The translations under genes were made by a program, and so were the position numbers. From Ornithinibacillus bavariensis (lineage in GTDB: Bacteria > Bacillota > Bacilli > Bacillales > Amphibacillaceae), in the NCBI RefSeq assembly GCF_018333235.1, contig NZ_BORP01000001.1, forward strand, positions 434,001 through 498,000: a stretch of 64,000 nt of DNA, read 5' to 3'. Every line of letters begins with the position of its first letter. The first letter of the stretch is position 1. This document shows, piece after piece, positions 9,308-31,211 of this stretch. The notes beneath the pieces were generated by a model that did no database searches, was not told where the DNA came from, and saw only the letters and a program-made list of their open reading frames with translations.

Positions 9308-9316
9308 CCTTTTGAG

Positions 9317-9357
9317 CACCCTTTAGAATTATTATTTTTCGAAAGGGTGTTTTTTTC
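9317..9357 (+). terminator. Intrinsic terminator after the hemolysin III gene
   Basis: CACCCTTT pairs with AAAGGGTG, followed by eight T. Confidence 0.8.
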
Positions 9358-9406
9358 TTGTTACCATTTTGATTTTCATGCGTTTAATTGTTGAGGGGAG
9401 GAGCTA

Positions 9407-9904
9407 ATGAAGCATACTATTAATAAAATTTATCAAGCATACTTTAACGATATATTTCATTTTCTCCTTTCTTTAAGTCAGAATTACCATACAGCAGAGG
9501 ATCTCGTACAGGAAACCTTTATCCGTGCACATCTTTATATTGAAACATATAAAGGAGAAAATATTAAGTCATGGCTATTTACAATAGCACATCATGTGTT
9601 TATCGACTATTACCGTAAACATAAAAAGATGATTATAAAGGATGAACGTTATTTTTCCTTTATATCTGATAAGAAGATAGGAACAGATGAAGAAATCATC
9701 GTACAAGAGGAAATTAATGAGGTTATTCGTCTAGTAGGAAATTTACCTGAGAAGCATAGGCTGGCAGTTCTTTTGCATGATATTCACGGCTTTTCTCAGT
9801 ATGAAGCAGCTAACGTAATGAATGTAAAGCAATCTTATTTTAAGGTCTTATTATTTAGAGGTCGACAGACAATAAGGCAGAGGAGGGCAAAGCATGACGG
9901 ATGA
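9407..9904 (+). CDS. sigM: ECF RNA polymerase sigma factor SigM-like
   Basis: A 165-residue extracytoplasmic-function sigma factor. Region 2 spans about residues 8-75 (HTAEDLVQETFIRAH, then WLFTIAHHVFIDYYRKHKK). Region 4 spans about 108-160 with an HTH of the GFSQYEAANVMNVKQSYFKVLLFRGRQ type. The order and sequence match Bacillus SigM, which answers cell-envelope and salt stress. The next gene encodes its YhdL-like anti-sigma factor and overlaps by 11 nt, indicating coupled translation. Confidence 0.85.
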   Translation: MKHTINKIYQAYFNDIFHFLLSLSQNYHTAEDLVQETFIRAHLYIETYKGENIKSWLFTIAHHVFIDYYRKHKKMIIKDERYFSFISDKKIGTDEEIIVQEEINEVIRLVGNLPEKHRLAVLLHDIHGFSQYEAANVMNVKQSYFKVLLFRGRQTIRQRRAKHDG

Positions 9905-16782: not shown

Positions 16783-17526
16783 TTGTTAGAGTCGAAGCGA
16801 AGAGCCATTATATTTTTTATTATAGCGATTTTATTAGCAGCTTTATCTGGTTATTTTGTTTTACAAAAGGTAAAAGATCTTAATGATAATCTTGGAACTA
16901 TGGTGAAGATTTATGTTGCTGATAGAGAGATCTATTCGAGAGCTTTAATTACTCCTGATGATGTTACTACTACAGAAATTCCAGCTAAATACATACGAGA
17001 TGAGTATATTACGAATGTGAATGATTTTCAAAATACTGTATCGATTGTACCTCTATCAAAAGGACAAATTATTACGCAGAATATGCTAAAACAAGCCTCA
17101 ACTGTTACAGAAGAAAACAATCGTTTAATTACAATCTTGCAAACAGCTAATGTCTTTTTTGATGAACGATTATATGACATGGATCGTGTCGATATTATCG
17201 TTTCTCATGAAGTAGAGGGGAAGAAAGTTACTGAAGTATTTATGAAAGACTTAAAAGTAGCTCGAATTGCGACAAATAATGAAACTAAGGAATTTAATGG
17301 AGTTCAAGTTGAAGTTCCATTTGATGAAGTTACTGATTTGATCCATATGTTAAATTACGCAGAAACAGTAAGAGTAATTCGAGCAAATGTTGGTCAAATG
17401 CCAAATCAAGGTAATCCTTCTGTTGAGGATCCAGAAAATGAAGATAGCAACTTAGAAGGTTCTGAAAAGAAAGATACGACTAAAGAAGATGTAGAGAAAG
17501 AAACTACTACTGATTCTAAGGAGTAA
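16783..17526 (+). CDS. cpaB: Flp pilus assembly protein CpaB (SAF domain)
   Basis: A 247-residue, single-pass membrane protein and first gene of the Tad operon. The transmembrane helix is residues 5-25. A SAF domain follows (about 38-105: VKIYVADREIYSRALITPDDVTT, LSKGQIITQNML), then an RcpC/CpaB-type beta domain. The tail after residue 205 is acidic and disordered. CpaB/RcpC is thought to help pilus passage through the envelope; in a Gram-positive it likely spans the wall zone. Translation begins at TTG, 7 nt after GAGGT. Confidence 0.78.
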   Translation: MLESKRRAIIFFIIAILLAALSGYFVLQKVKDLNDNLGTMVKIYVADREIYSRALITPDDVTTTEIPAKYIRDEYITNVNDFQNTVSIVPLSKGQIITQNMLKQASTVTEENNRLITILQTANVFFDERLYDMDRVDIIVSHEVEGKKVTEVFMKDLKVARIATNNETKEFNGVQVEVPFDEVTDLIHMLNYAETVRVIRANVGQMPNQGNPSVEDPENEDSNLEGSEKKDTTKEDVEKETTTDSKE

Positions 17527-17569: not shown

Positions 17570-18706
17570 ATGAAAAGAATAAATGAAATCTATGTAATTG
17601 GGAATAACGAGGATTTACTCTCTTCGATTCAATCACAACTTAGTCAGGAATATAAACTTCAAATGCTAGAAATAGATGAAATTAAAAAATTCTCTGTTCA
17701 AATTGTCTTGATGCTGAGAACGGATGAAATGTCTCCGCTAGATACTGCACAGACTGTTTTATCCTTATATCCTAAAGCACACCTAATTTATATCAGTGAT
17801 ATACCGAATTTCGAGTTGTTACGGGATTTAAATCGTATGGGTATTATGGAATATTTGGTTCTGCCAGATGAGGATTGGTTATTAGGAGATAGAATTCGTG
17901 AGATTGCAGAGTTGAAGCTTGCTAATCACGAACAGTCTTCAACTGTGGAAGGTTTTAAACGTGGCGGAGGAAAGGTTTTTACATTTTATAGTGGTAAAGG
18001 TGGGGCAGGTAAATCACTATTAAGTACTGCATTTGCACAAACACTAAAAGTGGAATCTACTGCTAAGGTGTTGTTTATTGACCTTAATTTACAATATGGC
18101 AGTGCCGAAACTTTTCTAGGTATTGATAGTAATAGGACAATTATTGATTTATATCCAGTTATACAAGAATTAAACGAGCATCATATTCGCAATGTAGCAG
18201 AAAAAGAGCCTCATTCGGGTCTAGATATACTAGTAAGTCCTAGGGATGCAGAATTAGCCGAGCGAATTGATGAAGAATTTATTCTAAGACTAATTAGAGC
18301 AAGTAAACGTAGCTATGATTTCATTATTATTGATGTTCCCACTTGGATTGATGAAAGAGTTTATACCACATTAGAGGAATCAGAAAAAATTTACTATGTT
18401 ATGAGTTATGACACTATTGCAATACGTGTACTAAAGAGTGTGGAAGAATTATTTCAACAGCTTGGAATAGTGATGAATGAGAAGATGGAACTAATTATTA
18501 ACTATAGTGGAAAAGACAATGAACTGAATCAGAAGGATTTAGAACGATTCATTGGTTATCCAATTGCGGCTAGAGTCAGAAGGGATTTGAAGGGAGTCCA
18601 ATCATTTGTCAATCAAGGAGTTCCTTTGAGAAAAGAACAAAAGGATAAAAAATTACCCCCAGTAGCAAGAGACGTTCAAAAATGGGTTCGTTCCATGTTA
18701 AAGTAG
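17570..18706 (+). CDS. tadZ: Pilus assembly ATPase CpaE/TadZ
   Basis: A 378-residue protein. An N-terminal receiver-like domain (1-120) without a clear phosphoacceptor is followed by a MinD/ParA-type ATPase with the deviant Walker A SGKGGAGKS (about 142-150) and Walker B-like FIIIDVPTW. TadZ localises the Tad machine at the membrane. It is spaced 43 bp after cpaB and 49 bp before tadA, consistent with a single operon. The combination with CpaB and CpaF neighbours makes the call firm. Confidence 0.85.
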   Translation: MKRINEIYVIGNNEDLLSSIQSQLSQEYKLQMLEIDEIKKFSVQIVLMLRTDEMSPLDTAQTVLSLYPKAHLIYISDIPNFELLRDLNRMGIMEYLVLPDEDWLLGDRIREIAELKLANHEQSSTVEGFKRGGGKVFTFYSGKGGAGKSLLSTAFAQTLKVESTAKVLFIDLNLQYGSAETFLGIDSNRTIIDLYPVIQELNEHHIRNVAEKEPHSGLDILVSPRDAELAERIDEEFILRLIRASKRSYDFIIIDVPTWIDERVYTTLEESEKIYYVMSYDTIAIRVLKSVEELFQQLGIVMNEKMELIINYSGKDNELNQKDLERFIGYPIAARVRRDLKGVQSFVNQGVPLRKEQKDKKLPPVARDVQKWVRSMLK

Positions 18707-18755: not shown

Positions 18756-20123
18756 ATGGCTCTTTTTCAAAAAGTTAGTAAAGAAAAAAAGGGTAACCTA
18801 CAACCGGACTTTAATGTAAATAGTACCTACATAGATGAGTTGGTCGAGCATTACAAGACAAGATTACTTACTGAGATAAATCTTGATCAGATTACCACAT
18901 TAGATGAACGAGAGAAAAAGTTAAAAATCGAACGCTATATCAATCAATTTATGACCGAGGAAAAAGTAGTGATTCCGAGGCATGATAAAGAAGCACTTCT
19001 CTCTAAATTGATTGATGAAAGTGTCGGGTTCGGACCTTTAGAGCCTTTACTTCAGGATGACGATATCACTGAAATACTAGTTAACGGACCTAAAGAAATA
19101 TATATCGAGAAAAAAGGAAAGTTGGAACAAGTAGATATTTCATTTAAGGATGAATCCCATGTAAGGCATATTGTTGATCGTGTAGTAGCACCGCTAGGCA
19201 GAAGAATAGATGAGAGTTCTCCTATGGTTGATGCTAGATTACCTGACGGAAGCCGTGTGAACGCAGTAATTTCACCGGTAAGCCTAGGAGGAACTATAAT
19301 TTCTATCCGCAAATTTAGAAGAACTCCTTTTGAAATGAAGGACCTTAGACGAAACGGAACCTTTACGAAGGACATGGAAGAATTTCTACAAGCACTAGTT
19401 AAAACCAAGCAAAACATATTGATTTCAGGTGGTACTGGAAGTGGGAAAACAACACTTCTGAATGCTTTAGCAAAAGAAATTCCACTTGGTGAACGTTTAA
19501 TAACCATTGAGGATTCTGCTGAATTAAGATTGGATCGAAATAACGCAGTTGGACTCGAGGCACGGCCACCGAACGTAGAGGGAAAAGGGGAAATATCCAT
19601 CCGTCAATTGGTAAAGAATGCTCTCCGGATGCGGCCAGATCGTATTATTGTAGGAGAGGTCCGTGGTGCTGAGGCATTTGATATGCTACAAGCAATGAAT
19701 ACCGGTCACGAAGGATCATTAACTACGGTCCATTCTAATACCCCTGCCGACGCAATAAACAGGGTTGAAGGGATGGTCGTAATGGCTGGAATGGATTTAC
19801 CTACTCATATTATTCGTGAGTATATCGTCGGGGCAATAGATTATATAGTTCAAGTGCAGCGCCTAACTGATGGGACAAGGAAAATCCTAAATATAGCAGA
19901 GGTGTCTGTGAATAAAGAAAACAAAATTGAAGTTAAGGATATTTTCTACTTTAAACGTACAGGAATAAATGAAAAGGGAGAAATATTAGGGTTTTATACG
20001 CCAACTGGTACTATTCCAAAATGCTTAAGCCACCTTGATATTTTTGGGTATCATTTCGAACAAACATTTTTTGAGCCGAAAGGAGAGATTTCCGATGAAT
20101 ATCACCGTGTCTATACTCTATAG
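18756..20123 (+). CDS. tadA: Type II/IV secretion ATPase TadA/CpaF
   Basis: A 455-residue hexameric traffic ATPase that powers pilin extension and retraction. It carries an N-terminal helical domain, then a core with Walker [10 protein letters not shown] (about 227-235), the Asp box TIEDSAEL, Walker [13 protein letters not shown] and the His box [13 protein letters not shown]. All catalytic motifs are intact. The gene end overlaps the tadB start by 29 nt. Confidence 0.93.
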
Positions 20124-21024
20124 TTTCGCAGTGCTATTTTTATTGATTGGTATATATTTCTTCCTTGGCTACCGCGACAAAAAAAAAGAATGGACTTATA
20201 AGGTTAAAAAATGGTTTCCAGAGGAAGAAAGAAAAAGCTTTATTAGTAAATTAGGCGAACGCTATGACAATAAAGAAAGTGCAAAAAAGCTTAAAAGCAA
20301 ATTACTAAACGCCAATCTTAAGCTATTACCATCGGAATACATAGGAATCCTATTAGTTGGTTCGCTTATATTATTTGTACTGTTTAATTTTATTTTCAAC
20401 ATGCCATTGCGATTAAGTTTACTGCTTTCTATTGGGATTATGATTGCATCACATTTCTTATTATTTTACATTCGTAAAAATAATTATGAAGCCCGTTTCA
20501 ATGAACAATTGTCAGAGGTTTGTAGATTACTAGCCAATGCTGCGCGTTCTGGTCTTACGATTACACAAGGAATTGAGATTGTTTCAAGAGAGGTAACTGG
20601 ACCAGCAGGGGATGAGTTTAAAAGGATCTCGAACGAATTGAAACTTGGTGTTCCATTAGAGTCTGCCTTCCGTTCCGTTCAAAAAAGGAATAAATCTAGG
20701 GATTTCAATTTGTTTATTGCAACGTTACTTATCCAAAAAAAGACAGGTGGAAATTTAGCTGTCACACTTGAGACGATGGCAAATACATTTGAGGATCGTA
20801 AGGTTTTAGCACAGACCATTAAAACAATGACAGCTGAACAGAAGTATATTTCGTTTATTGTTCCAGTTATGCCTATTTTTCTATTACTAGTAATGAATAA
20901 TGTTATCGAAGGTTTTATTGATCCACTCTTTTCTGGTTTCGGAGTCATAATTTTAATTTTATTTATTGGTGCTATTGTTCTATCGTTTTTAATTATTCGA
21001 AAGATCACAGATATAAAGGTGTAG
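20095..21024 (+). CDS. tadB: Tad inner platform protein TadB
   Basis: A 309-residue T2SSF-type membrane protein: one N-terminal helix (residues 5-24), a pair near 82-125, the cytoplasmic T2SSF fold (130-250, with NAARSGLTITQGIEIV and GGNLAVTLETMA), and two C-terminal helices. It forms the membrane platform with TadC. ATG 20095 follows AAAGGAGAG; the stop is 4 nt before tadC. Confidence 0.9.
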   Translation: MNITVSILYSFAVLFLLIGIYFFLGYRDKKKEWTYKVKKWFPEEERKSFISKLGERYDNKESAKKLKSKLLNANLKLLPSEYIGILLVGSLILFVLFNFIFNMPLRLSLLLSIGIMIASHFLLFYIRKNNYEARFNEQLSEVCRLLANAARSGLTITQGIEIVSREVTGPAGDEFKRISNELKLGVPLESAFRSVQKRNKSRDFNLFIATLLIQKKTGGNLAVTLETMANTFEDRKVLAQTIKTMTAEQKYISFIVPVMPIFLLLVMNNVIEGFIDPLFSGFGVIILILFIGAIVLSFLIIRKITDIKV

Positions 21025-21028
21025 GGTT

Positions 21029-21964
21029 ATGGATGCATTAATAATTATAACAATCATAGGTTTCTGGTTATGTATTTTACTATTTTTAAAGCATATGTGG
21101 ACTTTCTTACAGGAAAAAAAGAAGCGACTAGAATATGTCTCAGAAGTAACAAATATTGATCCTTTTGAAAAAAAGGAGAAAAAGAAAAACAAAAGGGCAG
21201 CTGTGTTTGAACAAATGACGAAATATGCAGATGATTTTTCGGATTTAGGACAGCGCATTAATTTTTTTAGTGAAAATCATGATGTTGAAGAATGGTTAAG
21301 GAAATCAGGAAATCCTCTTAAATTAACTGTACAACGATTTCAAGGTCTTAAGATTCTATTATTCTTTATAGGATTATTTATCGGAATATTAGTACTAATC
21401 ATCGGATTTCCTTTTTCTCAATATATTTTAGCGTTTGCTCCTATTTTGGGCTACTTTCTTCCCATTCTCTTAATTAAAAGGGAGGCTAAGAAACGTCAGG
21501 AGCTTATTCGAAAGGAATTACCAGACTTCTTGGACACAGTAAGTACAAGTGTTCAAGCAGGGGTAAGTCTTGATCACGCTTTACGGGAGGTGATTCGACA
21601 CTTTGATGGTCCTATCCGAGAAGAATTTTCACGTTTTAACAATGAAATTGATTTAGGGGTGCCGCGAGAAAGGGCTTATCGAGAGTTGCTAAGACGTAAT
21701 GATAACCCCGAGTTCCAATCTCTAATTAAAGCGCTCATTCAAGGGATGAATTTAGGAGTTCCAATTGCCACTACCTTTAAAATTCAGGCAGAAGATATGC
21801 GACAAATACGTGAGGAGAAAGTGAAGGAGTTAGCAGCAAAGGCTTCTCCAAAAGTAACACTTGTAACAACCTTTTTAATTGCCCCTGTATCTATATTGAT
21901 GATTGCAGGCTTGATGATCATGAATATGTTACTGGGTGAAAATAGCTTATTTTCAATATTTTAA
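21029..21964 (+). CDS. tadC: Tad inner platform protein TadC
   Basis: A 311-residue T2SSF-type membrane protein, partner of TadB. An N-terminal helix is followed by a lysine-rich loop, a helix pair (about 105-150), the T2SSF domain (ELPDFLDTVSTSVQAGVSLDHALREV at about 165-190; GMNLGVPIATTFKIQAEDMR) and a last helix near 275-300. Its position directly after tadB is the canonical order. Confidence 0.9.
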   Translation: MDALIIITIIGFWLCILLFLKHMWTFLQEKKKRLEYVSEVTNIDPFEKKEKKKNKRAAVFEQMTKYADDFSDLGQRINFFSENHDVEEWLRKSGNPLKLTVQRFQGLKILLFFIGLFIGILVLIIGFPFSQYILAFAPILGYFLPILLIKREAKKRQELIRKELPDFLDTVSTSVQAGVSLDHALREVIRHFDGPIREEFSRFNNEIDLGVPRERAYRELLRRNDNPEFQSLIKALIQGMNLGVPIATTFKIQAEDMRQIREEKVKELAAKASPKVTLVTTFLIAPVSILMIAGLMIMNMLLGENSLFSIF

Positions 21965-21982: not shown

Positions 21983-22201
21983 ATGAAAAAGATCAATGGT
22001 TACTATGTAAGGGTAATGAACAAGCTAAATTCTTGGAAAAAGGAGGAAACTGGATCACAAACACTGGAGTGGTTAGGTATCGCTGCTGTAGTTGTAATTG
22101 TTGTTGGTATTATTTCTACAGTCTTTAGTAATGATAATAGTATCGGGGATACTGTAAAACAGAAGTTCTCTGATTTTGTAGATACGATTGGTGGAAAGTA
22201 A
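21983..22201 (+). CDS. Flp-like major pilin candidate
   Basis: A 72-residue prepilin. The leader ends KKEETG, followed by SQTLEWLGI, giving a prepilin cleavage site after Gly with Glu at mature +5, then a single hydrophobic helix (AAVVVIVVGIISTVF) and a short polar tail. Size, motif and position after tadC make it the likely major Flp pilin. No dedicated prepilin peptidase gene lies in the window; ComC or another peptidase must serve. GGAGG precedes the ATG. Confidence 0.8.
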   Translation: MKKINGYYVRVMNKLNSWKKEETGSQTLEWLGIAAVVVIVVGIISTVFSNDNSIGDTVKQKFSDFVDTIGGK

Positions 22202-22266: not shown

Positions 22267-23679
22267 ATGAAGCGCTATACATTGATAATTACTATTTTGC
22301 TCATATTTGTTATTGCTTTAGCAGGGTGTAAAAAGGATAAGTCAGATGATACAGATAATGCAAAACCAGACAAACATACAGAAACGAAAACTGAAGAGGT
22401 TTCGAACTTAGATGAGCCAGATAACAAAGATAAGGAAGAAGAATCTAGTAACCTCAGTTTTCTTGAAGATATTGCCGAGCCACCCAGTAGCATTGCTGAC
22501 GTTATTCAGCAAAAGGCAGGTCCTTATTCTGGTATCGATGTAAATGACGATAGTGTCATTGACCAAGTACTTGAAGATGTTAGAAAATTGGAGCCACTTC
22601 CTGAGGATGCTACGGAAGAACAACTAAATGCTTATTTTAAGTATTTATATTCATTAGTAGCAGAGGACTATCCAGATCCAAAAGATACTATTAAAAAATG
22701 GGAATTTGGTTCATTTGGAGATCCAGACTTACCTGATTCTCGATTCCACTTTAAAGAGAATTATAATGTTGAAGTTCTTCTTGATGGAAGTGGTAGTATG
22801 GGCGCATATATTGGGAATAAAACGATGATGCAGATAGCTAAGGAAGCAATTAATAATTTCATGAAACAAGTTCCCAAAGAAGCAAATGTATCTTTACGAG
22901 TTTATGGTCACAAGGGTACCGGATCAAATAGTGATAAAAATCTTTCTTGTAGTACAATTGAGCAACTTTATGGATATGCTCCGTATGATGAGACGGCGTT
23001 TCAAAAAGAACTGGATAAAATTCAACCTGCTGGTTGGACACCACTTGCAGATGCGCTTAAGCAAGCAGAGGAATCATTGGCTAAGTATGACACAGAAAAT
23101 AATACTAACTTAATTTATGTGGTGAGTGATGGCGTAGAGACTTGTGATGGTGATCCGGTAGCTGTTGCTAAGTCACTTTCAAATTCTAATGCTAAACCTA
23201 TTATTAACATCATTGGATTTAAAGTAGACAATGAAGCACAGGCGCAGTTAAAAGCCATGGCAGATGTTTCCGGAGGGATTTTCTCCACAGCTAATGATCA
23301 AAGTGAATTAGAGGAAGAATTCAAGCGAGCTGAAGAAGTATTAAAATCCTGGGAGCGCTGGAAGAAAGATGCTTTAAGAAATGTTGATGCGATAAGACTT
23401 GATAATAACTTTGACATTTTGAGTATAAAAGTAGAGTGGGGAACAAAAGAAACTAAACAGTCGAATAACATTGCGAGATTAGCGACTTTGTTTAGAAATG
23501 AAGGAATTATTACACGTGAACAAATGAATTATTTACGCAGTCTACGTGATGAAATTCGTGTTATTATTCGTGATGGTCAAGACGAAGTCGTAAAGGAATT
23601 AAAAGATATTAGTACTGATAAGTTAGACGAACTTAAAAAGTCAATTAATGAAAAATATGATAAGGGAACTGAAGAATAA
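22267..23679 (+). CDS. VWA-domain lipoprotein of the Tad locus
   Basis: A 470-residue lipoprotein with lipobox LAGC (Cys21), followed by an acidic low-complexity linker (25-75). The von Willebrand A domain (about 165-345) has a complete MIDAS start DGSGSM and a downstream SDG. The C-terminal 110 residues are helical and coiled-coil-like. It resembles YwmC/YwmD-type Bacillus lipoproteins. VWA proteins often cap or decorate pili; here it could be an anchored assembly factor, which is inference from location. Confidence 0.75.
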   Translation: MKRYTLIITILLIFVIALAGCKKDKSDDTDNAKPDKHTETKTEEVSNLDEPDNKDKEEESSNLSFLEDIAEPPSSIADVIQQKAGPYSGIDVNDDSVIDQVLEDVRKLEPLPEDATEEQLNAYFKYLYSLVAEDYPDPKDTIKKWEFGSFGDPDLPDSRFHFKENYNVEVLLDGSGSMGAYIGNKTMMQIAKEAINNFMKQVPKEANVSLRVYGHKGTGSNSDKNLSCSTIEQLYGYAPYDETAFQKELDKIQPAGWTPLADALKQAEESLAKYDTENNTNLIYVVSDGVETCDGDPVAVAKSLSNSNAKPIINIIGFKVDNEAQAQLKAMADVSGGIFSTANDQSELEEEFKRAEEVLKSWERWKKDALRNVDAIRLDNNFDILSIKVEWGTKETKQSNNIARLATLFRNEGIITREQMNYLRSLRDEIRVIIRDGQDEVVKELKDISTDKLDELKKSINEKYDKGTEE

Positions 23680-23720: not shown

Positions 23721-25208
23721 TTGAAAACATTCTATAAGAGAATATTTGCTTTAATAGGAATTGTATTTCTCACCTTCTTACCTGTAATGACACCAACTGT
23801 CCACGCAGTTTCCTCCTGGTCGGGTGATCCATGGCAAGGTAGTCCATGGAATGGAAAGTCTTGGGACGGTAGTAACCTGCAATGGTCTGGGGATTCCTGG
23901 AATGGAAATAGTTGGAATGGTAATTCCTGGAATGGGAACAGTTGGACGAATCAATCATGGAGCCAAAATGGTTGGAATTTATCTGGATTTAAAGGTAATT
24001 CTTGGACCCAACAAGGCTGGGATGGATCATCATTTCAAGGGAATTCGTGGACCAATACAGGCTGGGATGGTAATCAATTCCAAGGAAATCCATGGTCAAG
24101 CTCTGGGTGGAGTATGTATGGATTTACAGGAAACCCGTGGTCAAATACCGGTTGGCTAGGGAATGGTTATTCTGGAAATCCATGGTCTAACTCAGGGTGG
24201 GATGGAAACGGTAATGGACCTCTAAATCCTTGGTCTAATTCAGGCTGGAATGGAAATGGCCATCAGGGTAATCCATGGTCCAGCGGTGGCGGAGGTGGTG
24301 CTGGGCCATTTGCTGGTCAACCAGGTTCTGGCACAACAATAAACCCACCGGGTCCTTATAATCCTTCAGCCCCAGAACAATTCTATGATACTGATGAGTT
24401 TAATGCAGCAAAATATGTTTGGGATAATATGATGAATGCTGCAATAGATATAGAGACTAATTATCCAAATGGTCTTCATGGTCTAGGTCCTAATGGTCTG
24501 AGTCCAGATTTCTTTAAAGGATTTATGGTTGATACCATTAAATTACAGCTTGGTGATCATATTGCAGTTGATCTTTATGACATAGGTGATACTGCATACA
24601 ACATGTATAGTGGTTATAAGGATCTAGAAGCAATAAGGCAGGCTACGTTTGCTGCAAATGCTGCAAGCATGACCAATAACGCTTACCAAATTTCAACTGC
24701 TTCTAGATTTGCTCAATACGGTAATTTAATCAAGGATTCGGCAGATGTTTTTCTAACTAAAACTGAATTCGGAAATTTATCAAGCACATGGAGCTCAATG
24801 GGTGCTTTATCAAAGTTAAACTTTGTAGCTTCCGGTGTAAATGCTGGTCTATCAGCCTATAAAACTGGTGTTAGTATTGGAAATGCCATAGACACTTGGC
24901 AGAATACGAAAGATGGTTCTGCCCGAACCTCTGCAATAGCCGATATTGGAGCAAACCTCGGGGAAACATTAATGAGTGTCGGTGGTGTGGCAACGGCAAT
25001 CCCAGGTGGTCAGGCTTTGGGGGCAGGCTTAGTAATAGTAGGCGGTGGATTATTTGTAGTCTCGAAAGCTACTAAATTAGTAGCAGATAACTGGGATAAA
25101 ATCACTGACTTTGGGAAAAGTGTTGGTAACGGTATTAAAAATGCCGGTAAATCCATAGCCAAGGGAGCTAAAAAGGTAGGTAGCATGATCAAAGGTTGGT
25201 TCTCATAA
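23721..25208 (+). CDS. Secreted Trp/Gly-repeat protein with glycine-rich cationic C-terminus
   Basis: A 495-residue protein of unrecognised family. The signal peptide is residues 1-29 (ending TVHA). A Trp/Gly/Asn repeat module covers 30-190: first W-x-G-x-[PS] 5-mers, then 15-residue units of the form GNPWSNSGWDGNGYS. A Gly/Pro linker (190-222) leads to a helical part and a C-terminus rich in Gly/Ala, then Lys-rich amphipathic segments (NAGKSIAKGAKKVGS). The first 40 mature residues align without gaps to the lipase encoded at 28806. TTG start with an ideal GGAGGTGAT site. It may be a surface effector or a pilus-associated adhesin; its function is unknown. Confidence 0.7.
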   Translation: MKTFYKRIFALIGIVFLTFLPVMTPTVHAVSSWSGDPWQGSPWNGKSWDGSNLQWSGDSWNGNSWNGNSWNGNSWTNQSWSQNGWNLSGFKGNSWTQQGWDGSSFQGNSWTNTGWDGNQFQGNPWSSSGWSMYGFTGNPWSNTGWLGNGYSGNPWSNSGWDGNGNGPLNPWSNSGWNGNGHQGNPWSSGGGGGAGPFAGQPGSGTTINPPGPYNPSAPEQFYDTDEFNAAKYVWDNMMNAAIDIETNYPNGLHGLGPNGLSPDFFKGFMVDTIKLQLGDHIAVDLYDIGDTAYNMYSGYKDLEAIRQATFAANAASMTNNAYQISTASRFAQYGNLIKDSADVFLTKTEFGNLSSTWSSMGALSKLNFVASGVNAGLSAYKTGVSIGNAIDTWQNTKDGSARTSAIADIGANLGETLMSVGGVATAIPGGQALGAGLVIVGGGLFVVSKATKLVADNWDKITDFGKSVGNGIKNAGKSIAKGAKKVGSMIKGWFS

Positions 25209-25222
25209 ACATTTTAAAATAC

Positions 25223-25259
25223 AGGTAACAGAATAGAGATTTACTCTATTCTGTTACCT
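25223..25259 (+). promoter_or_regulatory. Perfect 16-bp hairpin between two Tad-locus genes
   Basis: AGGTAACAGAATAGAG and its exact complement flank a 5-nt loop. The hairpin ends 20 nt before the next ATG and is followed by A-rich, not T-rich, sequence on the plus strand. It is thus less like a terminator and more like an mRNA processing or stabilising element that could set different levels for the two genes. Confidence 0.55.
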
Positions 25260-25278
25260 AAAAAATTAGGTGACATAC

Positions 25279-26106
25279 ATGCAACAAATTACTGCAAATG
25301 AGCTACTGAAGCTTGGAAAGAGGCATAAAAAGTGGAATGAGGATGTAACAATTGAACTATTCCCATATGCCATTAATAACCATCGCTATTATTTAGCGTA
25401 CTATTTAGGAAAGTTTTCTCGAGAGATAAAAAATATTGCCATATTATCACCTGATTCATCTAATAAAGATGAAGCGTTAAATGCATTGAAACAATTGGTC
25501 TATTTTACTATTACATTTGATAAGGTAGAGAACAATACAAAAACAAGAGCAGAATTAAATTTTGAAATCTATGGAGAAATTCGAAACTATTTAAGAAATA
25601 TATTGAATTCAGGTGTATTACAACCGGAATTCATAGATATTTATGATCGTTCTTATAAAGTAGTAGATAAAACGCTTAGATTACAAGATGAGATGTTAGA
25701 ACTTAGAAGTAGAGTGAATAAGTTTGCCCAAGATATTCTTGATAGAGGGTATTTCATTGATAGTGATATTGACGAGGTGCTTTCATTATTTCTTGCACCG
25801 GGGTGGATACAATTTCAACAGTTCTATGATAGTTATCGTTATAGGAATGATTTTGATGTTATTTATAAAAATGAAAATAATCCGGAGTTAATACCATTTT
25901 TCAAGTTTAGAGATCCCAAAACCCTGTTTAACATGACTAGTGGTATCGCTGAAGAACAATTAAAAAAATCACTTGATATCGTAACTGATAAGCAGGATAT
26001 GAGTAACTTCAGTAAAGAAGACTACTTTAATTATTGGACTAAAAAGTTTGAAAAAGGTTTATCCGATCGATATATACAACTTAGGAAAATTATCCGAAAT
26101 CTCTAG
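25279..26106 (+). CDS. Cytosolic protein of unknown function in the Tad locus
   Basis: A 275-residue protein with no signal peptide or membrane helix. It is rich in Tyr, Phe, Asn and charged residues and mostly helical (for example ILNSGVLQPEFIDIYDRS, LRLQDEMLELRSRVNK). No family recognised. It lies directly after the Trp/Gly-repeat protein and before a lipoprotein gene. Candidate roles are chaperone, export adaptor or immunity factor for its upstream neighbour; none is shown by sequence. The ATG at 25279 is favoured over GTG 25270 because AGGTGA is 5 nt upstream. Confidence 0.55.
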   Translation: MQQITANELLKLGKRHKKWNEDVTIELFPYAINNHRYYLAYYLGKFSREIKNIAILSPDSSNKDEALNALKQLVYFTITFDKVENNTKTRAELNFEIYGEIRNYLRNILNSGVLQPEFIDIYDRSYKVVDKTLRLQDEMLELRSRVNKFAQDILDRGYFIDSDIDEVLSLFLAPGWIQFQQFYDSYRYRNDFDVIYKNENNPELIPFFKFRDPKTLFNMTSGIAEEQLKKSLDIVTDKQDMSNFSKEDYFNYWTKKFEKGLSDRYIQLRKIIRNL

Positions 26107-26147
26107 AAATAGGTTAGGGCACACTGAATAATAAAGGAGTATATTAG

Positions 26148-26645
26148 ATGAAAAAAACAATCTGGTTTATTAGTTTCTTAAGTTTACTTATTTTAACTTC
26201 ATGTAGTACATCACCAGAAGCAGAAGAAATCGCAAAATATCACAACGATTATGTAGAGAATGTAAATTCACTAGCCTCACAGGTAGATGAACAAATACAA
26301 AAGTCATTTGCTACAGAAAGCCCTCAGGAAACTTATGATTTACAAACTGAAAATGTTTTACCTTTAATTGAAGAAATTAAGAAATATATTGAAGATATGC
26401 AACCTGAATCAGGAGAAGTGAAAGAACTTCATGAGATGCGATTGAAACAGCTTTCTGCTTGGGAAGAAGCATTTAAATTACAATATCAAGCATTAGAGAA
26501 AACGGTAGCGGAAGAATCGGAAGAGGAGGTAAGCAAATTATTAAAGGAATCAGACCAAAAACTGTTAGAGGCTGCAGAGTTAGGACAGCAGGCTGATAAC
26601 AAATTAGTTAAACTGGCTGAGGAACATGACGTTACTATAAATTAA
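26148..26645 (+). CDS. Small coiled-coil lipoprotein
   Basis: A 165-residue lipoprotein with lipobox LTSC (Cys19). The mature part is highly charged and helical, with heptad-like stretches rich in Glu, Leu and Gln, suggesting a coiled coil on the outer membrane face. AAAGGAG precedes the ATG. Its place between the unknown cytosolic protein and TadE suggests a structural or anchoring part of the apparatus. No named family recognised. Confidence 0.65.
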   Translation: MKKTIWFISFLSLLILTSCSTSPEAEEIAKYHNDYVENVNSLASQVDEQIQKSFATESPQETYDLQTENVLPLIEEIKKYIEDMQPESGEVKELHEMRLKQLSAWEEAFKLQYQALEKTVAEESEEEVSKLLKESDQKLLEAAELGQQADNKLVKLAEEHDVTIN

Positions 26646-26691
26646 GGGTTAGCGATAACAATTAAAAGAGCTGTTTATGGAGGATTGCCTT

Positions 26692-27093
26692 ATGAAATGG
26701 CTGAATAAAATTAGAAAAAGTGAAAACGGAAGTGCCACTATTGAATTTCTTGGTATTGTCCCATTAGCTTTAATTTTTTTAATGATAATATGGCAGTTTA
26801 TTGTTGGAGTCAATGCTGTAGTAGTGGCTAAGTCTGCGGTGAACGAATATGCAGAGGTTTATTCTGTAACAAAGGATTTGAATGACGCTCGGGATGCAGC
26901 AAAAACTATTATTGATGCAACTGGAGATTATTTAGTATTCGATAGTTTTACTACAGAACCTGGGGAATATGATAAAGAATTTACAGCTGAGCTTGCTGTT
27001 AATATTAAGTTAGTTTTTATTCCTGAATTGTTTAGAGGTTCCGTACCAAGCATACCATATAGTGCAGCGGCATACGGTAGGGTGATAGAGTGA
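26692..27093 (+). CDS. tadE: TadE-like minor pilin
   Basis: A 133-residue pseudopilin. The short leader ends KSENG, followed by SATIEFLGI, with Glu at mature +5, then a hydrophobic helix and a polar domain with strands (YAEVYSVTKDL, AAAYGRV). It matches the TadE-like family. ATG 26692 has GGAGGA 7 nt upstream; ATG 26677 overlaps that site and is unlikely. The last codons overlap the next gene as GTGA. Confidence 0.82.
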   Translation: MKWLNKIRKSENGSATIEFLGIVPLALIFLMIIWQFIVGVNAVVVAKSAVNEYAEVYSVTKDLNDARDAAKTIIDATGDYLVFDSFTTEPGEYDKEFTAELAVNIKLVFIPELFRGSVPSIPYSAAAYGRVIE

Positions 27094-27854
27094 AGAACAT
27101 AATATCATATTATCGGAATGAGCAAGGTAATGTTGTTTTGTTTGTAATAGGTATGTTAGGTATTATGATGGTCTTATTTATATTAGTAGTTAATCTTAGT
27201 TCTGCTCTAGCTACTAAGCAGCAATCGGAAACGACTGTCTCACAAGCTAGTTTGGCAGCCACAAGTGCCTTTTATGAAGAAGTTAGAAGAGTTATTACCG
27301 GTTTCTCTTACCCAGAACCAATTCCTCCTACCGAACCTGATCCTGAAGCAGATTCATCTGCCTGGGAGGCATATCGTGAAGCATTAAAAGAATATGAAGA
27401 AAAGCTAGAAGTCTATAAGTTCTTTACATTATTTGATAATTATGTTGCTTCAGCTAAAGCGGGTCTTACTGGTTTGGAATATCGTGACTGGTCTGACAAA
27501 GAATTAGAATTACAAGCTTTTGATGTAGTAATTAATGGCGCCTTAACTAATGGTCGTCTGCTTCAAGAGATAGTAGAAGGTCTGTTAGTAGGGAATAATA
27601 GCATTCAACAAGCAGCAATAACTATGGGAATTCTGACTATTGAAAAGAATGGTGGAATTTTAGAGGAAGCTACATTAGATATTAGGGATAATCGAATCGA
27701 AATTAGAGCAGCTACTGAAGCTACATCAACTGCCTACGACGGCTTTGTAGAAAGTGTAACAGAAAAGCTTTACCAAGAGTCATCTGGTCCAAAGATTGAT
27801 TTTATTAACTTGATATGGACAAAGACACTACCAGTTTATTTAGAATATGAATGA
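27090..27854 (+). CDS. TadG-like pilus assembly protein
   Basis: A 254-residue protein with an N-terminal TadG-type segment (NEQGNVVLFVIGMLG, helix about 14-38) and an exported domain containing a proline-rich stretch (PEPIPPTEPDPEAD). It lacks the VWA domain of full-length TadG; a VWA domain is instead present in the lipoprotein at 22267, so the function may be split in this locus. The GTG start overlaps the tadE stop, implying translational coupling. Confidence 0.65.
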   Translation: MKNIISYYRNEQGNVVLFVIGMLGIMMVLFILVVNLSSALATKQQSETTVSQASLAATSAFYEEVRRVITGFSYPEPIPPTEPDPEADSSAWEAYREALKEYEEKLEVYKFFTLFDNYVASAKAGLTGLEYRDWSDKELELQAFDVVINGALTNGRLLQEIVEGLLVGNNSIQQAAITMGILTIEKNGGILEEATLDIRDNRIEIRAATEATSTAYDGFVESVTEKLYQESSGPKIDFINLIWTKTLPVYLEYE

Positions 27855-27886
27855 GGTTAATTCTTGAACATTAAGAGGAGATAATT

Positions 27887-28603
27887 ATGAAAAGTCCTTT
27901 TCGAAATACATGGGAGATATATACTGGAAGATTTGAGAGAGTATTGCTATTAATGTTATTTACAACACTACCATTATTAATAGTTCATTCATTTGCTACA
28001 AATTATATCTATGCTATCACTCCTAGTATGGACCCATTATATTCATTTGCAGACATTTATTATGGACTAATAACCATATTATTATATATTTTTGCACAAG
28101 TACCATATGTTCGGTTTGTCTATAACGAATACAACGATATGGAGCGAAGTTTTCAAGATGCAATTTTCCAATTCATCGTATTAGGTTTTACGGTTTTTAT
28201 ATTTGCAACGATTGTTTCAATCTTATCAATCATTGGTTTTTCGCTATTTATAATTCCTGGTTTTATTATATTAGCTCTTACCCTACCAGTACCATATGTA
28301 AGTGTTTTTGATAAAAAATCAGTATGGAGGTCATATAAAGAAGGGATACGAATTGGAAAGAAGCACTTTTGGAAAATCTTTTTATTGATATTAGTAACGG
28401 GTTTACTTGAAATGATTGCGGGCGTTTTGATTACATCACAAATTTTTAATATTACTAATTCCTTTGCTGCACAAATTATTACACAAATCGTACTGAATTT
28501 AATCTACTATCCATTCATTGTCATGCTACTAAGCTCCTGTATGATTAAATGGCGTGAGGAACAGAAAGTACTAGAAACACGTGATGAAACGGAAGTTGCA
28601 TGA
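27887..28603 (+). CDS. Six-helix membrane protein, YciC/DUF975-like
   Basis: A 238-residue polytopic protein with about six helices. It has a central LSIIGFSLFIIPGFIILALTLPVPYV segment and an SVWRSYKEGIRIGKKHFWK loop, a layout shared with glycerophosphodiester-phosphodiesterase-type membrane domains and YciC-like proteins. It is the last gene before the operon terminator. Function unknown; it may support membrane insertion of the apparatus. Confidence 0.6.
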   Translation: MKSPFRNTWEIYTGRFERVLLLMLFTTLPLLIVHSFATNYIYAITPSMDPLYSFADIYYGLITILLYIFAQVPYVRFVYNEYNDMERSFQDAIFQFIVLGFTVFIFATIVSILSIIGFSLFIIPGFIILALTLPVPYVSVFDKKSVWRSYKEGIRIGKKHFWKIFLLILVTGLLEMIAGVLITSQIFNITNSFAAQIITQIVLNLIYYPFIVMLLSSCMIKWREEQKVLETRDETEVA

Positions 28604-28621
28604 CTAGGATTTATTGAAAGT

Positions 28622-28655
28622 TGACGCATTGAAAATACAATGCGTTTGCTTTTGT
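28622..28655 (+). terminator. Terminator of the main Tad operon
   Basis: ACGCATTG pairs with CAATGCGT, followed by TTTGCTTTTG. It separates the Tad genes from the lipase gene, which should have its own promoter in 28656-28800. Confidence 0.7.
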
Positions 28656-28805
28656 TCAATTAATTGCACTTCCCTATATCAATTTACAGTTTCTTTCAAA
28701 TACTAAGCAATTTACTCCACATTGATAAAGCAATTTAATTCCTCGTTAAAGTCATTTTAATAAATAAAATTCCCAAATATAAAATGTAATAGGGAGAGAT
28801 TTATT

Positions 28806-30104
28806 TTGAAAAGGTACTGTGGGAAAGTCCTTACGATTTTTGCTGGCATTATATTAATTTATTTTACTGTTTTAACTCCAACGGTAAATGCAGTTACTCC
28901 ATGGTCTGGTAAACCCTGGAAGGGAAACCCTTGGAAAGGAACGCCATGGGATGCGGGAGAATTGCAATGGGAAGGTGTACCTTGGGACGGTAACCCTATC
29001 AATGGAAACCATAATGGTAATGAAATGAATAAAGATGGTTCTGATGACAATTCAACAGAGGGAAACGAAACGAATGAATCCTCCGAAAGTAATCAGGAAA
29101 AGCTATGTTTACCTGGTGAAGGTGGTTGCGATGGAACCAACGGGAAAAAAATTGATTTATCAATTGAGGAAGAGATGGATAAAGCAATAGAGCAATTTCT
29201 AAAAGATAATAATGTCAAAAAGCCTCTATTTATGTCAAAAAAAGCTTATGAAAAAGAAGTGGAAAAACTAAAACAAAAACTAAAGTCGGAATTTACTAGA
29301 TTATTAGAAAGACCACATGGAACTGTGCAAGATGTTGATATTCCAGATAATGTGTTGGCAACACTTGCACAATCAGGATATACTGAAAACCATTTGGGAA
29401 AAGACGGTAAACTGGACAAGGATAATAAATTATTAACTTATGGTTGGAAGGAATATGAAAGTGTAGAATATGATTCTGGTTTCCATGCACGTCTATATAA
29501 AAATGATGATGAAGGTAAAATCGTAGTTTCATTTGGTGGAACGGAAACAGATGATATGAAGGACCTGTTAACAGATGGCCGTCTTGCCTTAGGATACAGT
29601 GATGACCAATTTGAAGAGGCACTTAAATTTGTAAATGATATGATGCTGGAACATCCTGATAAAGAAATCGTGATCACTGGACATTCACTTGGTGGAGCTT
29701 TGGCGCAATATGTGGCTATTAATAAGGGAATACCAGCAATTACCTACAATGCTCCAGGGATAGATACTCGGGACTATGGTTTTTTTGAAAATCCATTGAA
29801 AATATTTTTTCGCGATGGAAACATGATAGCTGTAGAGAAATTCTTAAACGAAAATGGACTATTACATAACTTAGTTGAGAATCATATCATGGAAGATGAT
29901 GCAATTGGGAGCTATCAAATTCATGTAGGGACCACTTATTCATATGCTAGCGATGGAACGGTAACATGTCGTGATGATTATAGTAAAGAGAAACACAAAA
30001 GAGATTTACCTACCAAAAAGATACCGGAGATGTGGAATGATTTTAAAAAAGATTTACCAAACCATGGTATGCATAAATTTTTTGAGATGATGGTTCCATG
30101 TTAG
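28806..30104 (+). CDS. Secreted class-3 lipase with Trp/Gly N-terminal module
   Basis: A 432-residue protein. The signal peptide (1-29, ending TVNA) is followed by the Trp/Gly module (30-70) that aligns gap-free with the protein encoded at 23721. Then comes an acidic Asn/Ser linker with Cys101 and Cys108, a helical spacer and an alpha/beta-hydrolase domain. The nucleophile elbow is GHSLGG (292-297, Ser294), and FGGTETDD precedes it as the oxyanion strand of class-3 lipases. It probably cleaves lipids or phospholipids outside the cell. TTG start after GGGAGAG. Use as an antibacterial effector is speculative. Confidence 0.78.
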   Translation: MKRYCGKVLTIFAGIILIYFTVLTPTVNAVTPWSGKPWKGNPWKGTPWDAGELQWEGVPWDGNPINGNHNGNEMNKDGSDDNSTEGNETNESSESNQEKLCLPGEGGCDGTNGKKIDLSIEEEMDKAIEQFLKDNNVKKPLFMSKKAYEKEVEKLKQKLKSEFTRLLERPHGTVQDVDIPDNVLATLAQSGYTENHLGKDGKLDKDNKLLTYGWKEYESVEYDSGFHARLYKNDDEGKIVVSFGGTETDDMKDLLTDGRLALGYSDDQFEEALKFVNDMMLEHPDKEIVITGHSLGGALAQYVAINKGIPAITYNAPGIDTRDYGFFENPLKIFFRDGNMIAVEKFLNENGLLHNLVENHIMEDDAIGSYQIHVGTTYSYASDGTVTCRDDYSKEKHKRDLPTKKIPEMWNDFKKDLPNHGMHKFFEMMVPC

Positions 30105-30170: not shown

Positions 30171-31211
30171 ATGATACGTATTGTGCTGGCAGGTTTTTTC
30201 TCGTTAGTTTTTCCAGGAATAGGTCAGCTATTTAATCGACAATGGATCAAAGGAATTTCTTTTATCGTAATAGAACTTTGTCTCCTATATTTTGCTACCC
30301 CTGAGGTATGGGTTGTGATGATTTACCGTGTAATTTGGTTGATTAGTATTATTGATGCTTCAGTCATTGCATATTTAGTCTATAAAGGGAAAAAAGAATT
30401 ACACGTCCTAAAAGGATGGCGGGCAGTTTTAGTTGTAGGATTGGCAAATCTTATTATTTTACCAATCGCTCTGTTACCATCTCTTCTTCCTCATATTTCT
30501 TACTATTTAGCAGTAACACAAATGACAGATGCCAAGGGAGGCTCTGCCGAACAGTTGCAGGAAGAAAAAAAGATATATGAGGATTATTTAGTGGAGACGT
30601 ATGGTGAAGAGTTTTCCCTGGGTGATGCAACATTTAATTCAAATTATGGTCATTATTTAGTAGATGCATCTCCAAAAACCAATCCTAATTTGGTTTTCGG
30701 AGTATATCAGGATTGGAATGATAAGATTAATGATTCATACATTGATACTTTATGGGGAGAAGAGGCGAGAAATGAGGTATCTCCAATCATTGAGAAGTTA
30801 TATGAGGATGTTTGGATGAATCATGTAGAAGTCGCAATTAAAGCCGGGTCCAAAGAGAAAATCCTAATTGAAAATAAGCAGATAATTGGTTTCAATGAAG
30901 GAAGAAGTAAATACCCTCAAGACTATTATTATTGGGTAGAACTATTAGTCTTTCAAGACTACGATAATCCAGAACAAGAATTAGAAAAATTATATGAAAT
31001 TATTACTTATTTTAAAAATGCGGAAATTCAAGTTACTAGTTTTGATGTAAAATATTATGATGAAACGTTGCTAGAAAAAGAAGGAAGTGACATAGAGCCT
31101 GGTTACAAATATAACGAATATGCCACGCATTTTATTTCACTGAATAAGGATAAAATCAATCAAATTAATTCGATTAAAGATCTGGAAGAACACATGATAA
31201 CTTTGGAGTAA
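30171..31211 (+). CDS. Membrane protein with large extracytoplasmic domain
   Basis: A 346-residue protein. Three to four helices lie in the first 120 residues (LAGFFSLVFPGIGQLFNRQWIKGI is TM2-domain-like), followed by an extracytoplasmic domain of about 225 residues with many acidic and aromatic residues. Family not recognised. It follows the lipase gene by 66 bp and could be cotranscribed. The ATG at 30171 was chosen because GGGTGAG is directly upstream. Confidence 0.6.
   Translation: MIRIVLAGFFSLVFPGIGQLFNRQWIKGISFIVIELCLLYFATPEVWVVMIYRVIWLISIIDASVIAYLVYKGKKELHVLKGWRAVLVVGLANLIILPIALLPSLLPHISYYLAVTQMTDAKGGSAEQLQEEKKIYEDYLVETYGEEFSLGDATFNSNYGHYLVDASPKTNPNLVFGVYQDWNDKINDSYIDTLWGEEARNEVSPIIEKLYEDVWMNHVEVAIKAGSKEKILIENKQIIGFNEGRSKYPQDYYYWVELLVFQDYDNPEQELEKLYEIITYFKNAEIQVTSFDVKYYDETLLEKEGSDIEPGYKYNEYATHFISLNKDKINQINSIKDLEEHMITLE

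What the first reader, a model, noticed from the sequence alone, without database searches (positions are those of the whole stretch)
23721..30104. Shared Trp/Gly N-terminal module on two secreted proteins inside a Tad locus
The proteins at 23721 and 28806 have 29-residue signal peptides ending TPTV[HN]A. The next ~40 residues align without gaps, with tryptophans at the same six positions (W-x-G-x-[PS] 5-mers, then LQW-x-G). Beyond that they are unrelated: one ends in a helical Gly/Lys-rich domain, the other in a class-3 lipase. A common N-terminus with exchangeable C-termini, next to a secretion or pilus machine, is the pattern of modular effectors or adhesins. I know of no named family with this module.
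Basis: partly seen in the sequence, partly recalled or inferred. Interest (0 to 1): 0.82.

Follow-up and report, generated by a model that had tools for sequence, protein, structure and literature searches.

The report
Swappable toxins built into pilus loci
Next to the genes for a thin surface pilus, these bacteria encode secreted proteins with a shared front end and interchangeable toxin-like back ends, each with matching neighbour genes that look protective, which suggests a pilus-linked weapon against other bacteria.

Summary
The two proteins share a signal peptide and a gap-free W-x-G module (23 of 42 residues; 0 of 20,000 shuffles reach this). The module is in 19 of 159 family genomes; 42 of 42 fetched loci with a W-module protein carry at least two kinds of Tad gene. 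Of 60 such proteins over 300 aa, 55 end in a glycine-zipper domain, 3 in a lipase, 1 in a second zipper and 1 in a Tox-SHH nuclease followed by a SUKH-1 gene. In another order, four proteins of one Tad locus share an unrelated N-terminal repeat and carry zipper, lipase, Ntox44 and unassigned ends. The zippers resemble C-termini of T7SS LXG toxins beyond shuffled controls. Downstream genes change with the C-terminus, co-diverge with it and also occur without it. Best reading: Sec-exported polymorphic toxin/immunity cassettes belonging to a Tad locus. Toxicity, immunity and any role of the pilus in delivery are untested.

The parts
16783..17526 (+). CpaB-like gene of the Tad operon (name from position and recall)
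   Evidence: Homologue group in 14 of 20 family loci; no PDB match
17570..18706 (+). CpaE/TadZ-like ATPase (name from position and recall)
   Evidence: ParA/MinD-type ATPases in PDB, best 5.5e-17
18756..20123 (+). TadA/CpaF pilus motor ATPase
   Evidence: CpaF in PDB, 3.4e-109
20035..21024 (+). TadB-like membrane protein (name from recall; start probably near 20095)
   Evidence: Homologue group with two members per locus in most family loci; no PDB relative
21029..21964 (+). TadC-like membrane protein (name from recall)
   Evidence: Same homologue group as the gene before it
21983..22201 (+). 72-aa Flp-type pilin (name from recall)
   Evidence: Read; homologue group in 14 of 20 family loci
22267..23679 (+). 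VWA-domain lipoprotein of the locus
   Evidence: PF13519 1.8e-11, PF00092 2.3e-11; group in 19 of 20 family loci
23721..25208 (+). Effector 1: signal peptide, W-module, W/G repeats, glycine-zipper C-terminus
23805..23927 (+). W-module of effector 1
24801..25205 (+). Class I glycine-zipper domain of effector 1, the proposed toxin domain
   Evidence: A4 match E=3.7e-49 (one of the rows used to build it); kinship to LXG C-termini
25279..26106 (+). g2: soluble-looking protein of about 275 aa, proposed cytosolic immunity protein
   Evidence: Co-diverges with the effector; no Pfam family over its cut-off
26148..26645 (+). Small lipoprotein of the locus, role unknown
   Evidence: Homologue group in 15 of 20 family loci; no Pfam hit over cut-off
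26677..27093 (+). TadE minor pilin
   Evidence: PF07811 21.2 bits, under the 22.9 cut-off; 23 bits, over it,
27090..27854 (+). TadG-like protein
   Evidence: PF13400 9.8e-6, over its cut-off
27887..28603 (+). g3: polytopic membrane protein, proposed membrane immunity or accessory protein
   Evidence: UPF0259 matched by 17 of 28 members, best 7.9e-7, this one under the cut-off; co-diverges with the effector
28806..30104 (+). Effector 2: signal peptide, W-module, class-3 lipase C-terminus
   Evidence: PF01764 1.6e-6, over cut-off; NF047388 1.6e-19 but 69.9 bits, under its cut-off of 230
28890..29012 (+). W-module of effector 2
29514..29912 (+). Lipase domain of effector 2
   Evidence: NF047388 match at residues 237-369
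30171..31211 (+). g23: membrane protein with a long C-terminal domain, proposed lipase immunity protein
   Evidence: Next to the lipase in 4 of the 5 loci with a lipase effector: L037, L045, L055, L240; not in L210
31375..31860 (+). RDD-family membrane protein, tentative member
   Evidence: PF06271 3e-24; a homologue also follows g23 in L037, with a 101-aa ORF between

Best explanation
The locus encodes polymorphic toxin/immunity cassettes that belong to a Tad (type IVc) pilus locus. Each toxin leaves the cell through Sec by its signal peptide. The mature N-terminus is a short tandem repeat (here W-x-G-x-P/S) that acts as the common address and holds the protein at the surface or on the pilus. 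The C-terminus is the warhead: effector 1 inserts a glycine-zipper helical domain in the target membrane and depolarises it; effector 2 hydrolyses membrane lipid. g2 neutralises the zipper in the cytosol before export, g3 protects or helps at the membrane, and g23 protects against the lipase. Shown by sequence: modularity, Tad linkage, domains shared with known toxins, and exchange and co-divergence of the partner genes. Inferred: export by Sec, toxicity, immunity, surface holding, and delivery by or with the pilus.
For: One N-terminus, four C-termini: 60 W-module proteins over 300 aa split 55 zipper I, 3 lipase, 1 zipper II, 1 Tox-SHH. The Tox-SHH protein (PF15652 1.3e-30, PT-TG 3.3e-7) is followed by a SUKH-1 gene (PF09346 1.7e-10). 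In L240, another order, four proteins share a PPELN repeat and end in zipper, lipase, Ntox44 (PF15607 7.3e-15) and an unassigned domain. Zipper I against LXG C-termini: hhalign score 45.5, E=2.3e-6; 120 shuffles reach at most 21.5. Zipper II against LXG: score 79.5, E=8.5e-12; 60 shuffles reach at most 28.7. Partner exchange: 58 of 61 class-I-only loci have g2 and 1 of 61 has both T6 and T4; 1 of 15 class-II-only loci has g2 and 14 of 15 have both T6 and T4. In L037 a W-module protein with a zipper II end is followed by the zipper II gene set. CT-g2 co-divergence: partial r=0.60 given TadA distance, none of 2,000 permutations reaches it; the true pairing ranks 3 of 128 within-locus swaps. In 14 family loci the effector correlates with g2 at 0.75 and g3 at 0.55, with VWA, tadE, tadG and tadA at 0.02 to 0.21. 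Of 397 genomes 41 have both CT and g2, 24 g2 only, 3 CT only. 79 class I effectors sit with 113 g2 genes.
Against: There are no toxicity, secretion or competition data. Class I is close to constant where this kind of Tad locus was found (61 of 63 class I loci have at least two kinds of Tad gene), which also fits a structural part. 12 of the 24 g2-only genomes belong to one family (f25) with a single g2; those I could see lie in ordinary surroundings (part of the output was cut), so g2 may do something else there. g3 accompanies both zipper classes, so it is no class-specific immunity protein. L086, L234 and L241 have a class I effector without g2, and L238 has the trio without Tad genes. Zippers are Gly/Ala rich: the reversed A5 profile scored 27.0 against LXG, A8 against A5 aligned only 20 columns, and only 1 of 68 class I and 7 of 17 class II effectors match the LXG profile directly. 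The g2 and g3 models were made from class I loci and the T6 and T4 models from class II loci, so counts within their own class are partly built in. The lipase is as close to fungal lipases as to the T6SS lipase effector in PDB. No structure could be predicted.
Confidence: 0.78

Rival explanations
1. Pilus-associated adhesins or structural parts. The repeats form an extended sticky stalk, the zipper end anchors it in the producer's own membrane, and g2 and g3 are assembly factors.
For: Class I is found almost only with Tad genes (61 of 63 loci); in most loci it sits between VWA and tadE; repeats differ strongly between families; g3 is common to both zipper classes.
Against: Lipase, Tox-SHH and Ntox44 ends on the same N-termini; SUKH-1 beside Tox-SHH; zipper ends resemble LXG toxin ends; g2 surplus and g2 without effector; six Tad loci of one family have no recognised effector.
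Confidence: 0.15
2. Real secreted toxins whose link to the pilus is only genetic: Sec export is the whole route, and Tad genes share regulation or a niche (for example contact on surfaces) without handling the toxins.
For: Each effector has its own signal peptide (by eye); L238 has effector, g2 and g3 without Tad genes in a 19-kb region; no physical link can be seen in sequence.
Against: The linkage is very strong over many families, and the N-terminal repeats are shared by unlike toxins of one locus, which suggests a common partner.
Confidence: 0.35
3. g2 and g3 are dedicated export chaperones of zipper proteins, not immunity proteins.
For: g3-like proteins occur with both zipper classes, and a Yip1 membrane protein precedes two other effectors; co-divergence fits a chaperone as well.
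Against: g2 without effector in 24 of 397 genomes and more g2 genes than effectors in 22 of 63 class I loci; published analogues bind and neutralise the zipper (PMC12744356, passages).
Confidence: 0.25

Closest known systems
EsxX-ExiAB/ExiCD and TelE-TipE, T7SSb LXG glycine-zipper toxins (PMC12744356: abstract and passages; PMC10434224: search listing only)
   Same: C-terminal glycine-zipper domain; a soluble protein and polytopic membrane proteins encoded beside it; orphan immunity genes. The paper reports that the EsxX C-terminus with a Sec signal is toxic from outside.
   Different: No LXG domain and no T7SSb in this genome; own signal peptide and repeats; g2 does not match DUF5085 and g3 does not match DUF5079/5080 in Pfam.
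TslA-TilA, T7SS lipase toxin (PMC10730906: abstract and passages)
   Same: A lipase as a proposed antibacterial effector with an envelope-anchored partner gene.
   Different: Lipase at the C-terminus here, at the N-terminus in TslA; partner g23 is a polytopic protein, TilA a DUF576 lipoprotein.
Polymorphic toxins exported by Sec with lineage-specific N-termini, such as MafB (PMC3482391: passages)
   Same: Signal peptide, constant N-terminus, variable C-termini, neighbouring immunity genes.
   Different: N-terminus is a short tandem repeat that differs between lineages; genes lie inside a Tad pilus locus.
Kil, Tad-like predation apparatus of Myxococcus (PMC12075869: passages; PMC8460266: listing)
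   Same: Tad-type pilus linked with contact-dependent killing.
   Different: Kil carries tip minor pilins; here secreted toxin-like proteins with their own signal peptides are encoded in the locus, and killing is untested.
T7SSg and T7SSh beside Tad genes (PMC11217815: passages)
   Same: Antibacterial secretion and Tad genes side by side in Gram-positive bacteria.
   Different: Those have T7SS core genes; none were found here by the LXG and EssC searches.

Membership tests
Polymorphic toxin systems | Constant N-terminal trafficking module with different C-terminal domains | tested here: met
   Four C-terminal kinds on the W-module; four PPELN-repeat proteins in L240
Polymorphic toxin systems | C-terminal domains of known toxin families | tested here: met
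   Tox-SHH 1.3e-30 and Ntox44 7.3e-15, both over cut-off, in relatives; the window's own lipase is over the Lipase_3 cut-off, its zipper matches no Pfam family
Polymorphic toxin systems | Cognate immunity gene next to the toxin | tested here: inconclusive
   SUKH-1 beside Tox-SHH; g2, g3, g23 inferred from exchange and co-divergence, neutralisation not shown
Polymorphic toxin systems | Toxic activity | not testable with these tools
   Needs expression assays
T7SSb LXG effectors | N-terminal LXG domain | tested here: not met
   No LXG match in the window proteins or in the genome
T7SSb LXG effectors | T7SSb machine in the genome | tested here: not met
   EssC model: two matches of 126-128 bits, cut-off 778; genome 96.7% complete
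Glycine-zipper membrane-depolarising toxins (EsxX/TelE type) | C-terminal zipper domain related to LXG zipper toxins | tested here: met
   Profile comparison over shuffled controls; EsxX and TelE themselves were not compared
Glycine-zipper membrane-depolarising toxins (EsxX/TelE type) | Membrane depolarisation | not testable with these tools
   Needs an assay
Tad (type IVc) pilus locus | TadA/CpaF motor with TadE/TadG-like pilins | tested here: met
   CpaF 3.4e-109; TadE 23 bits; Tad PF13400 9.8e-6
Tad (type IVc) pilus locus | Makes a pilus, and the pilus handles the effectors | not testable with these tools
   Needs mutants
TslA-type T7 lipases | Reverse arrangement, N-terminal lipase and C-terminal LXG-like helices | tested here: not met
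   Lipase match at residues 237-369 of 432, behind signal peptide and module

The most novel reading that the evidence does not exclude
A Gram-positive Tad pilus is a contact-dependent weapon: Sec-exported toxins dock on it through their N-terminal tandem repeats and are presented or pushed to the neighbour's membrane, so that this Tad locus is a toxin delivery system in its own right with an exchangeable payload.
Probability: 0.4. Interest if true: 0.92.

Novelty: new variant of a known kind. Interest (0 to 1): 0.84.

Why it matters
If true, Tad loci of Gram-positive bacteria get a concrete, testable job. It would add a route for polymorphic toxins beside T7SSb, with related zipper warheads behind a different address label. 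It offers candidate immunity families without names (g2, g23), and a clean set-up to ask how one N-terminal repeat can serve pore formers, lipases and nucleases.

Tried and rejected
Chance low-complexity similarity was rejected. The only genome-contig hit with the back-translated module, L035 in a Bacteroidia record, is antisense to an ORF that I read as SusD-like and was dropped. PDB gave nothing of use for the zipper, g2 (only short weak matches, many of them designed proteins) or g3. Pfam: scattered matches of one or two members for the zipper and of one member each for g2 among the families shown. Plasmid and phage collections held no relative of the C-terminal part of effector 1, and a viral-contig scan with A4 none. 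A similarity between g23 and the lipoprotein beside the L210 lipase, suspected by eye, was not supported. PADLOC: no match for 6 proteins. A count left out class II effectors that also match the LXG profile; the corrected count is, whose signal-peptide filter in turn missed the effector of L048. An earlier count said 8 of 17 class II effectors match the LXG profile; the output shows 7.

Selections: A3 used 18 of 27 modules; A5 43 of 69 C-termini, one per cluster; A6 42 of 62 non-redundant g2, 88 found; A7 28 non-redundant of 59 g3; A8 one locus (L126) added to 16 of the 22 C-termini listed. Neighbourhoods were fetched for 40 of the 44 genomes; three others were already held and G387 was not fetched. 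The output was cut.
Full report
The observation. Two ORFs with TTG starts, 23721-25208 and 28806-30104, encode proteins with 29-residue signal peptides and a gap-free W-x-G module. Over 42 residues 23 are identical, against at most 13 in 20,000 shuffles; the C-terminal parts are unrelated. The second ends in a class-3 lipase, over the Pfam cut-off. The first ends in a Gly/Ala-rich hydrophobic stretch and a cationic helical tail, with no Pfam or NCBIfam match at E<=1. In this genome the module is in these two proteins only. Signal peptides were read by eye.

The setting. The locus runs CpaB-like, CpaE-like ATPase, TadA/CpaF (E=3.4e-109), TadB-like, TadC-like, a 72-aa pilin, a VWA lipoprotein, effector 1, g2, a small lipoprotein, TadE, a TadG-like protein, g3, effector 2, g23 and an RDD protein. 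The names CpaB, CpaE, TadB, TadC and Flp rest on position and recall; two searches found no PDB relative for two of them.

The module is a family trait. A profile of the two modules hits 19 of 159 genomes of the family, in 7 of 46 genera, some with three or four copies within 15 kb. All 19 are among the 76 of 159 genomes with a TadE match; the other 57 have TadE without the module. The 20 regions fetched around the hits all carry Tad genes. The common order is VWA, effector, g2, g3, TadE, TadG; the trio of effector, g2 and g3 can be repeated, and some loci have extra g2 genes.

The C-terminal domain reaches further. Profile A4 hits 44 of 397 sampled genomes of the order, in 24 of 135 genera. 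Of 40 neighbourhoods fetched, 37 have a zipper ORF among at least two kinds of Tad gene; the others are a decayed copy (L115), a weak hit without a zipper ORF (L114) and an LXG locus (L102). In the Tad-locus proteins that I read, the mature N-terminus is a short repeat whose letters change between lineages: W-x-G in many, PG, NTPEL, APDL and others elsewhere. In 86 genomes of the class 11 have the domain at E<=1e-4, the window genome included. Of 11 regions fetched there, 8 have at least two kinds of Tad gene; L236 ends at a contig edge, L238 has effector, g2 and g3 without Tad genes, and L242 has a zipper protein without a signal peptide. L235 has the W-module in another order.

The zipper resembles known toxin ends. 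L102 has an LXG protein (PF04740 3.7e-55); an ORF beside it, 75% identical to that protein's end over the query, matches the zipper profile at 1.7e-5. That end searched back matches 30 of 397 genomes. Many of these proteins begin like LXG proteins by eye, two are confirmed by Pfam, and three are in Tad loci (L156, L157, L158). Profile against profile, the Tad zipper (A5) and LXG ends (A8) align with E=2.3e-6, score 45.5 over 112 columns; g2 and g3 profiles score 10.0 and 15.1, 60 column shuffles at most 20.9, 60 block shuffles at most 21.5, the reversed profile 27.0; with query and template exchanged the score is 44.1 but over only 20 columns. Direct matches to the LXG profile are rare for class I, 1 of 68, and commoner for class II, 7 of 17; two class I proteins of the class sample match at 8e-5 and 1.2e-4. 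Published LXG zipper toxins depolarise membranes and have a soluble cytosolic immunity pair and polytopic membrane immunity proteins (PMC12744356, abstract and passages).

A second warhead with a second partner set. Around VWA hits without class I I fetched 40 more regions. Fifteen loci, three of them, have a signal-peptide protein with PG repeats and another zipper end (class II); it is followed by a six-helix protein of 186-209 aa in all 15, one of 118-145 aa in 13, a g3-like protein in all 15 and one of 138-160 aa in all 15 (helix counts are from a crude hydropathy scan). Class II against LXG ends gives E=8.5e-12, score 79.5, 60 shuffles at most 28.7; class II against class I gives score 44.7, shuffles at most 16.0. 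Six Tad loci of one family have no recognised effector. In L037 the designs meet: a W-module protein with a class II end (CT2 E=2e-20) is followed by T6, T4, g3-like and T3 genes (1e-15, 8e-13, 9e-74, 2e-24), in the same locus as two W-module class I proteins with g2 and g3. Over all fetched loci g2 is in 58 of 61 class-I-only and 1 of 15 class-II-only loci; T6 and T4 together in 1 of 61 and 14 of 15. Loci were collected through these genes and the models were made from the same loci, so the numbers show association and not prevalence; the independent points are the absence of each set from the other class and the L037 case.

More warheads. In the loci scanned, 60 W-module proteins over 300 aa lie in 41 loci: 55 zipper I, 3 lipase, 1 zipper II, 1 other. 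The other, in L121, has PT-TG and a Tox-SHH domain and is followed by a SUKH-1 protein; that these are classic toxin and immunity families is recalled, and the Pfam descriptions of the toxin domains agree. In L240, another order, four proteins begin with the same PPELN repeat: a zipper with g2 and g3, a lipase with g23, an Ntox44 protein, and one without an assigned end. So lipase and g23 recur behind another N-terminus. g23 lies next to the lipase in 4 of 5 loci with a lipase effector (L037, L045 as pieces, L055, L240); in L210 lipoproteins follow instead. In L210, a partial Tad locus, the lipase protein and a hydrophobic protein share yet another N-terminus by eye. Two proteins, L121 8484 and L240 2588, are preceded by a Yip1-domain membrane protein.

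Partner genes behave like immunity genes. Over 49 adjacent pairs effector and g2 distances correlate at 0.77 and, given TadA distance, at 0.60; none of 2,000 permutations reaches this, and the true pairing ranks third of 128 swaps in seven loci with two pairs. With one effector per locus (42 loci) the partial correlations are 0.60 for g2, 0.61 for g3, 0.23 for VWA, 0.25 for TadE and 0.35 for TadG; within the family (14 loci) the effector correlates with g2 at 0.75 and g3 at 0.55, with VWA, TadE, TadG and TadA at 0.02, 0.15, 0.21 and 0.18. Of 397 genomes 41 have the zipper and g2, 24 g2 only, 3 the zipper only (G167; a spurious hit; the LXG case). Class I loci hold 79 effectors and 113 g2 genes; g2 outnumbers class I in 22 of 63 loci and falls short in 4. 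Against this, 12 of the 24 are one family with a single g2, in ordinary surroundings where I could see them, and at least two of the 24 carry class II effectors (L175, L178).

Mechanism. Shown: modular design, Tad linkage, kinship with toxin domains, and exchange and co-divergence of partner genes. Inferred: export by Sec (signal peptides; no LXG protein and no EssC over cut-off in this genome); retention by the repeats; membrane insertion by the zipper; lipid attack by the lipase; neutralisation by g2, g3 and g23. As g3 goes with both zipper classes and Yip1 with two other effectors, such membrane proteins may help export or folding. Whether the pilus delivers or displays the toxins, or only shares the locus, is open.

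What is known. A Tad-like pilus kills prey in Myxococcus (PMC12075869, passages). T7SSg and T7SSh lie beside Tad genes with the link left open (PMC11217815, passages). Sec-exported polymorphic toxins with lineage-specific N-termini are described (PMC3482391, passages). In the held open-access library, searches listed no title or abstract on signal-peptide toxins encoded in Tad loci of Gram-positive bacteria; most subscription papers are not in it. I file this as a new variant of polymorphic toxin systems.

Noticed in passing
L203, L206, L207, L214-L220 (about 8900-10800 in each): A solitary g2 gene in ordinary chromosomal surroundings in genomes of one family (f25): a domesticated immunity gene or a gene with another role.
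   Followed up: partly
L164, L165, L167, L208, L221: Regions without Tad genes hold VWA lipoproteins, in four of the five with g2 and in several with a 65-78-aa membrane protein; they look like stray accessory or immunity islands.
   Followed up: no
L121 9765-10397; L240 1946-2557: A Yip1-domain membrane protein precedes an effector in two different orders, much as g3 accompanies the zipper effectors.
   Followed up: partly
L036 9128-9877, L049 3432-4121, L050 7757-8191 and 11650-12324, L053 1-526: W-module effectors in pieces or cut at a contig end: pseudogenes, or assembly errors in the repeats.
   Followed up: no
L168, L169, L172, L195, L196, L197: Tad loci of one family (f41) without a recognised effector carry after VWA a 453-498 aa protein with five to seven hydrophobic segments and a small protein of 93-114 aa.
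   Followed up: no
window 26148-26645: A small lipoprotein found in 15 of 20 family loci and sometimes twice; it could be an extracellular immunity or assembly factor.
   Followed up: no
L242 9602 onwards, minus strand: A 374-aa protein without a signal peptide and without Tad genes nearby matches both the LXG and the Tad zipper profiles; another N-terminal route for a similar end.
   Followed up: no
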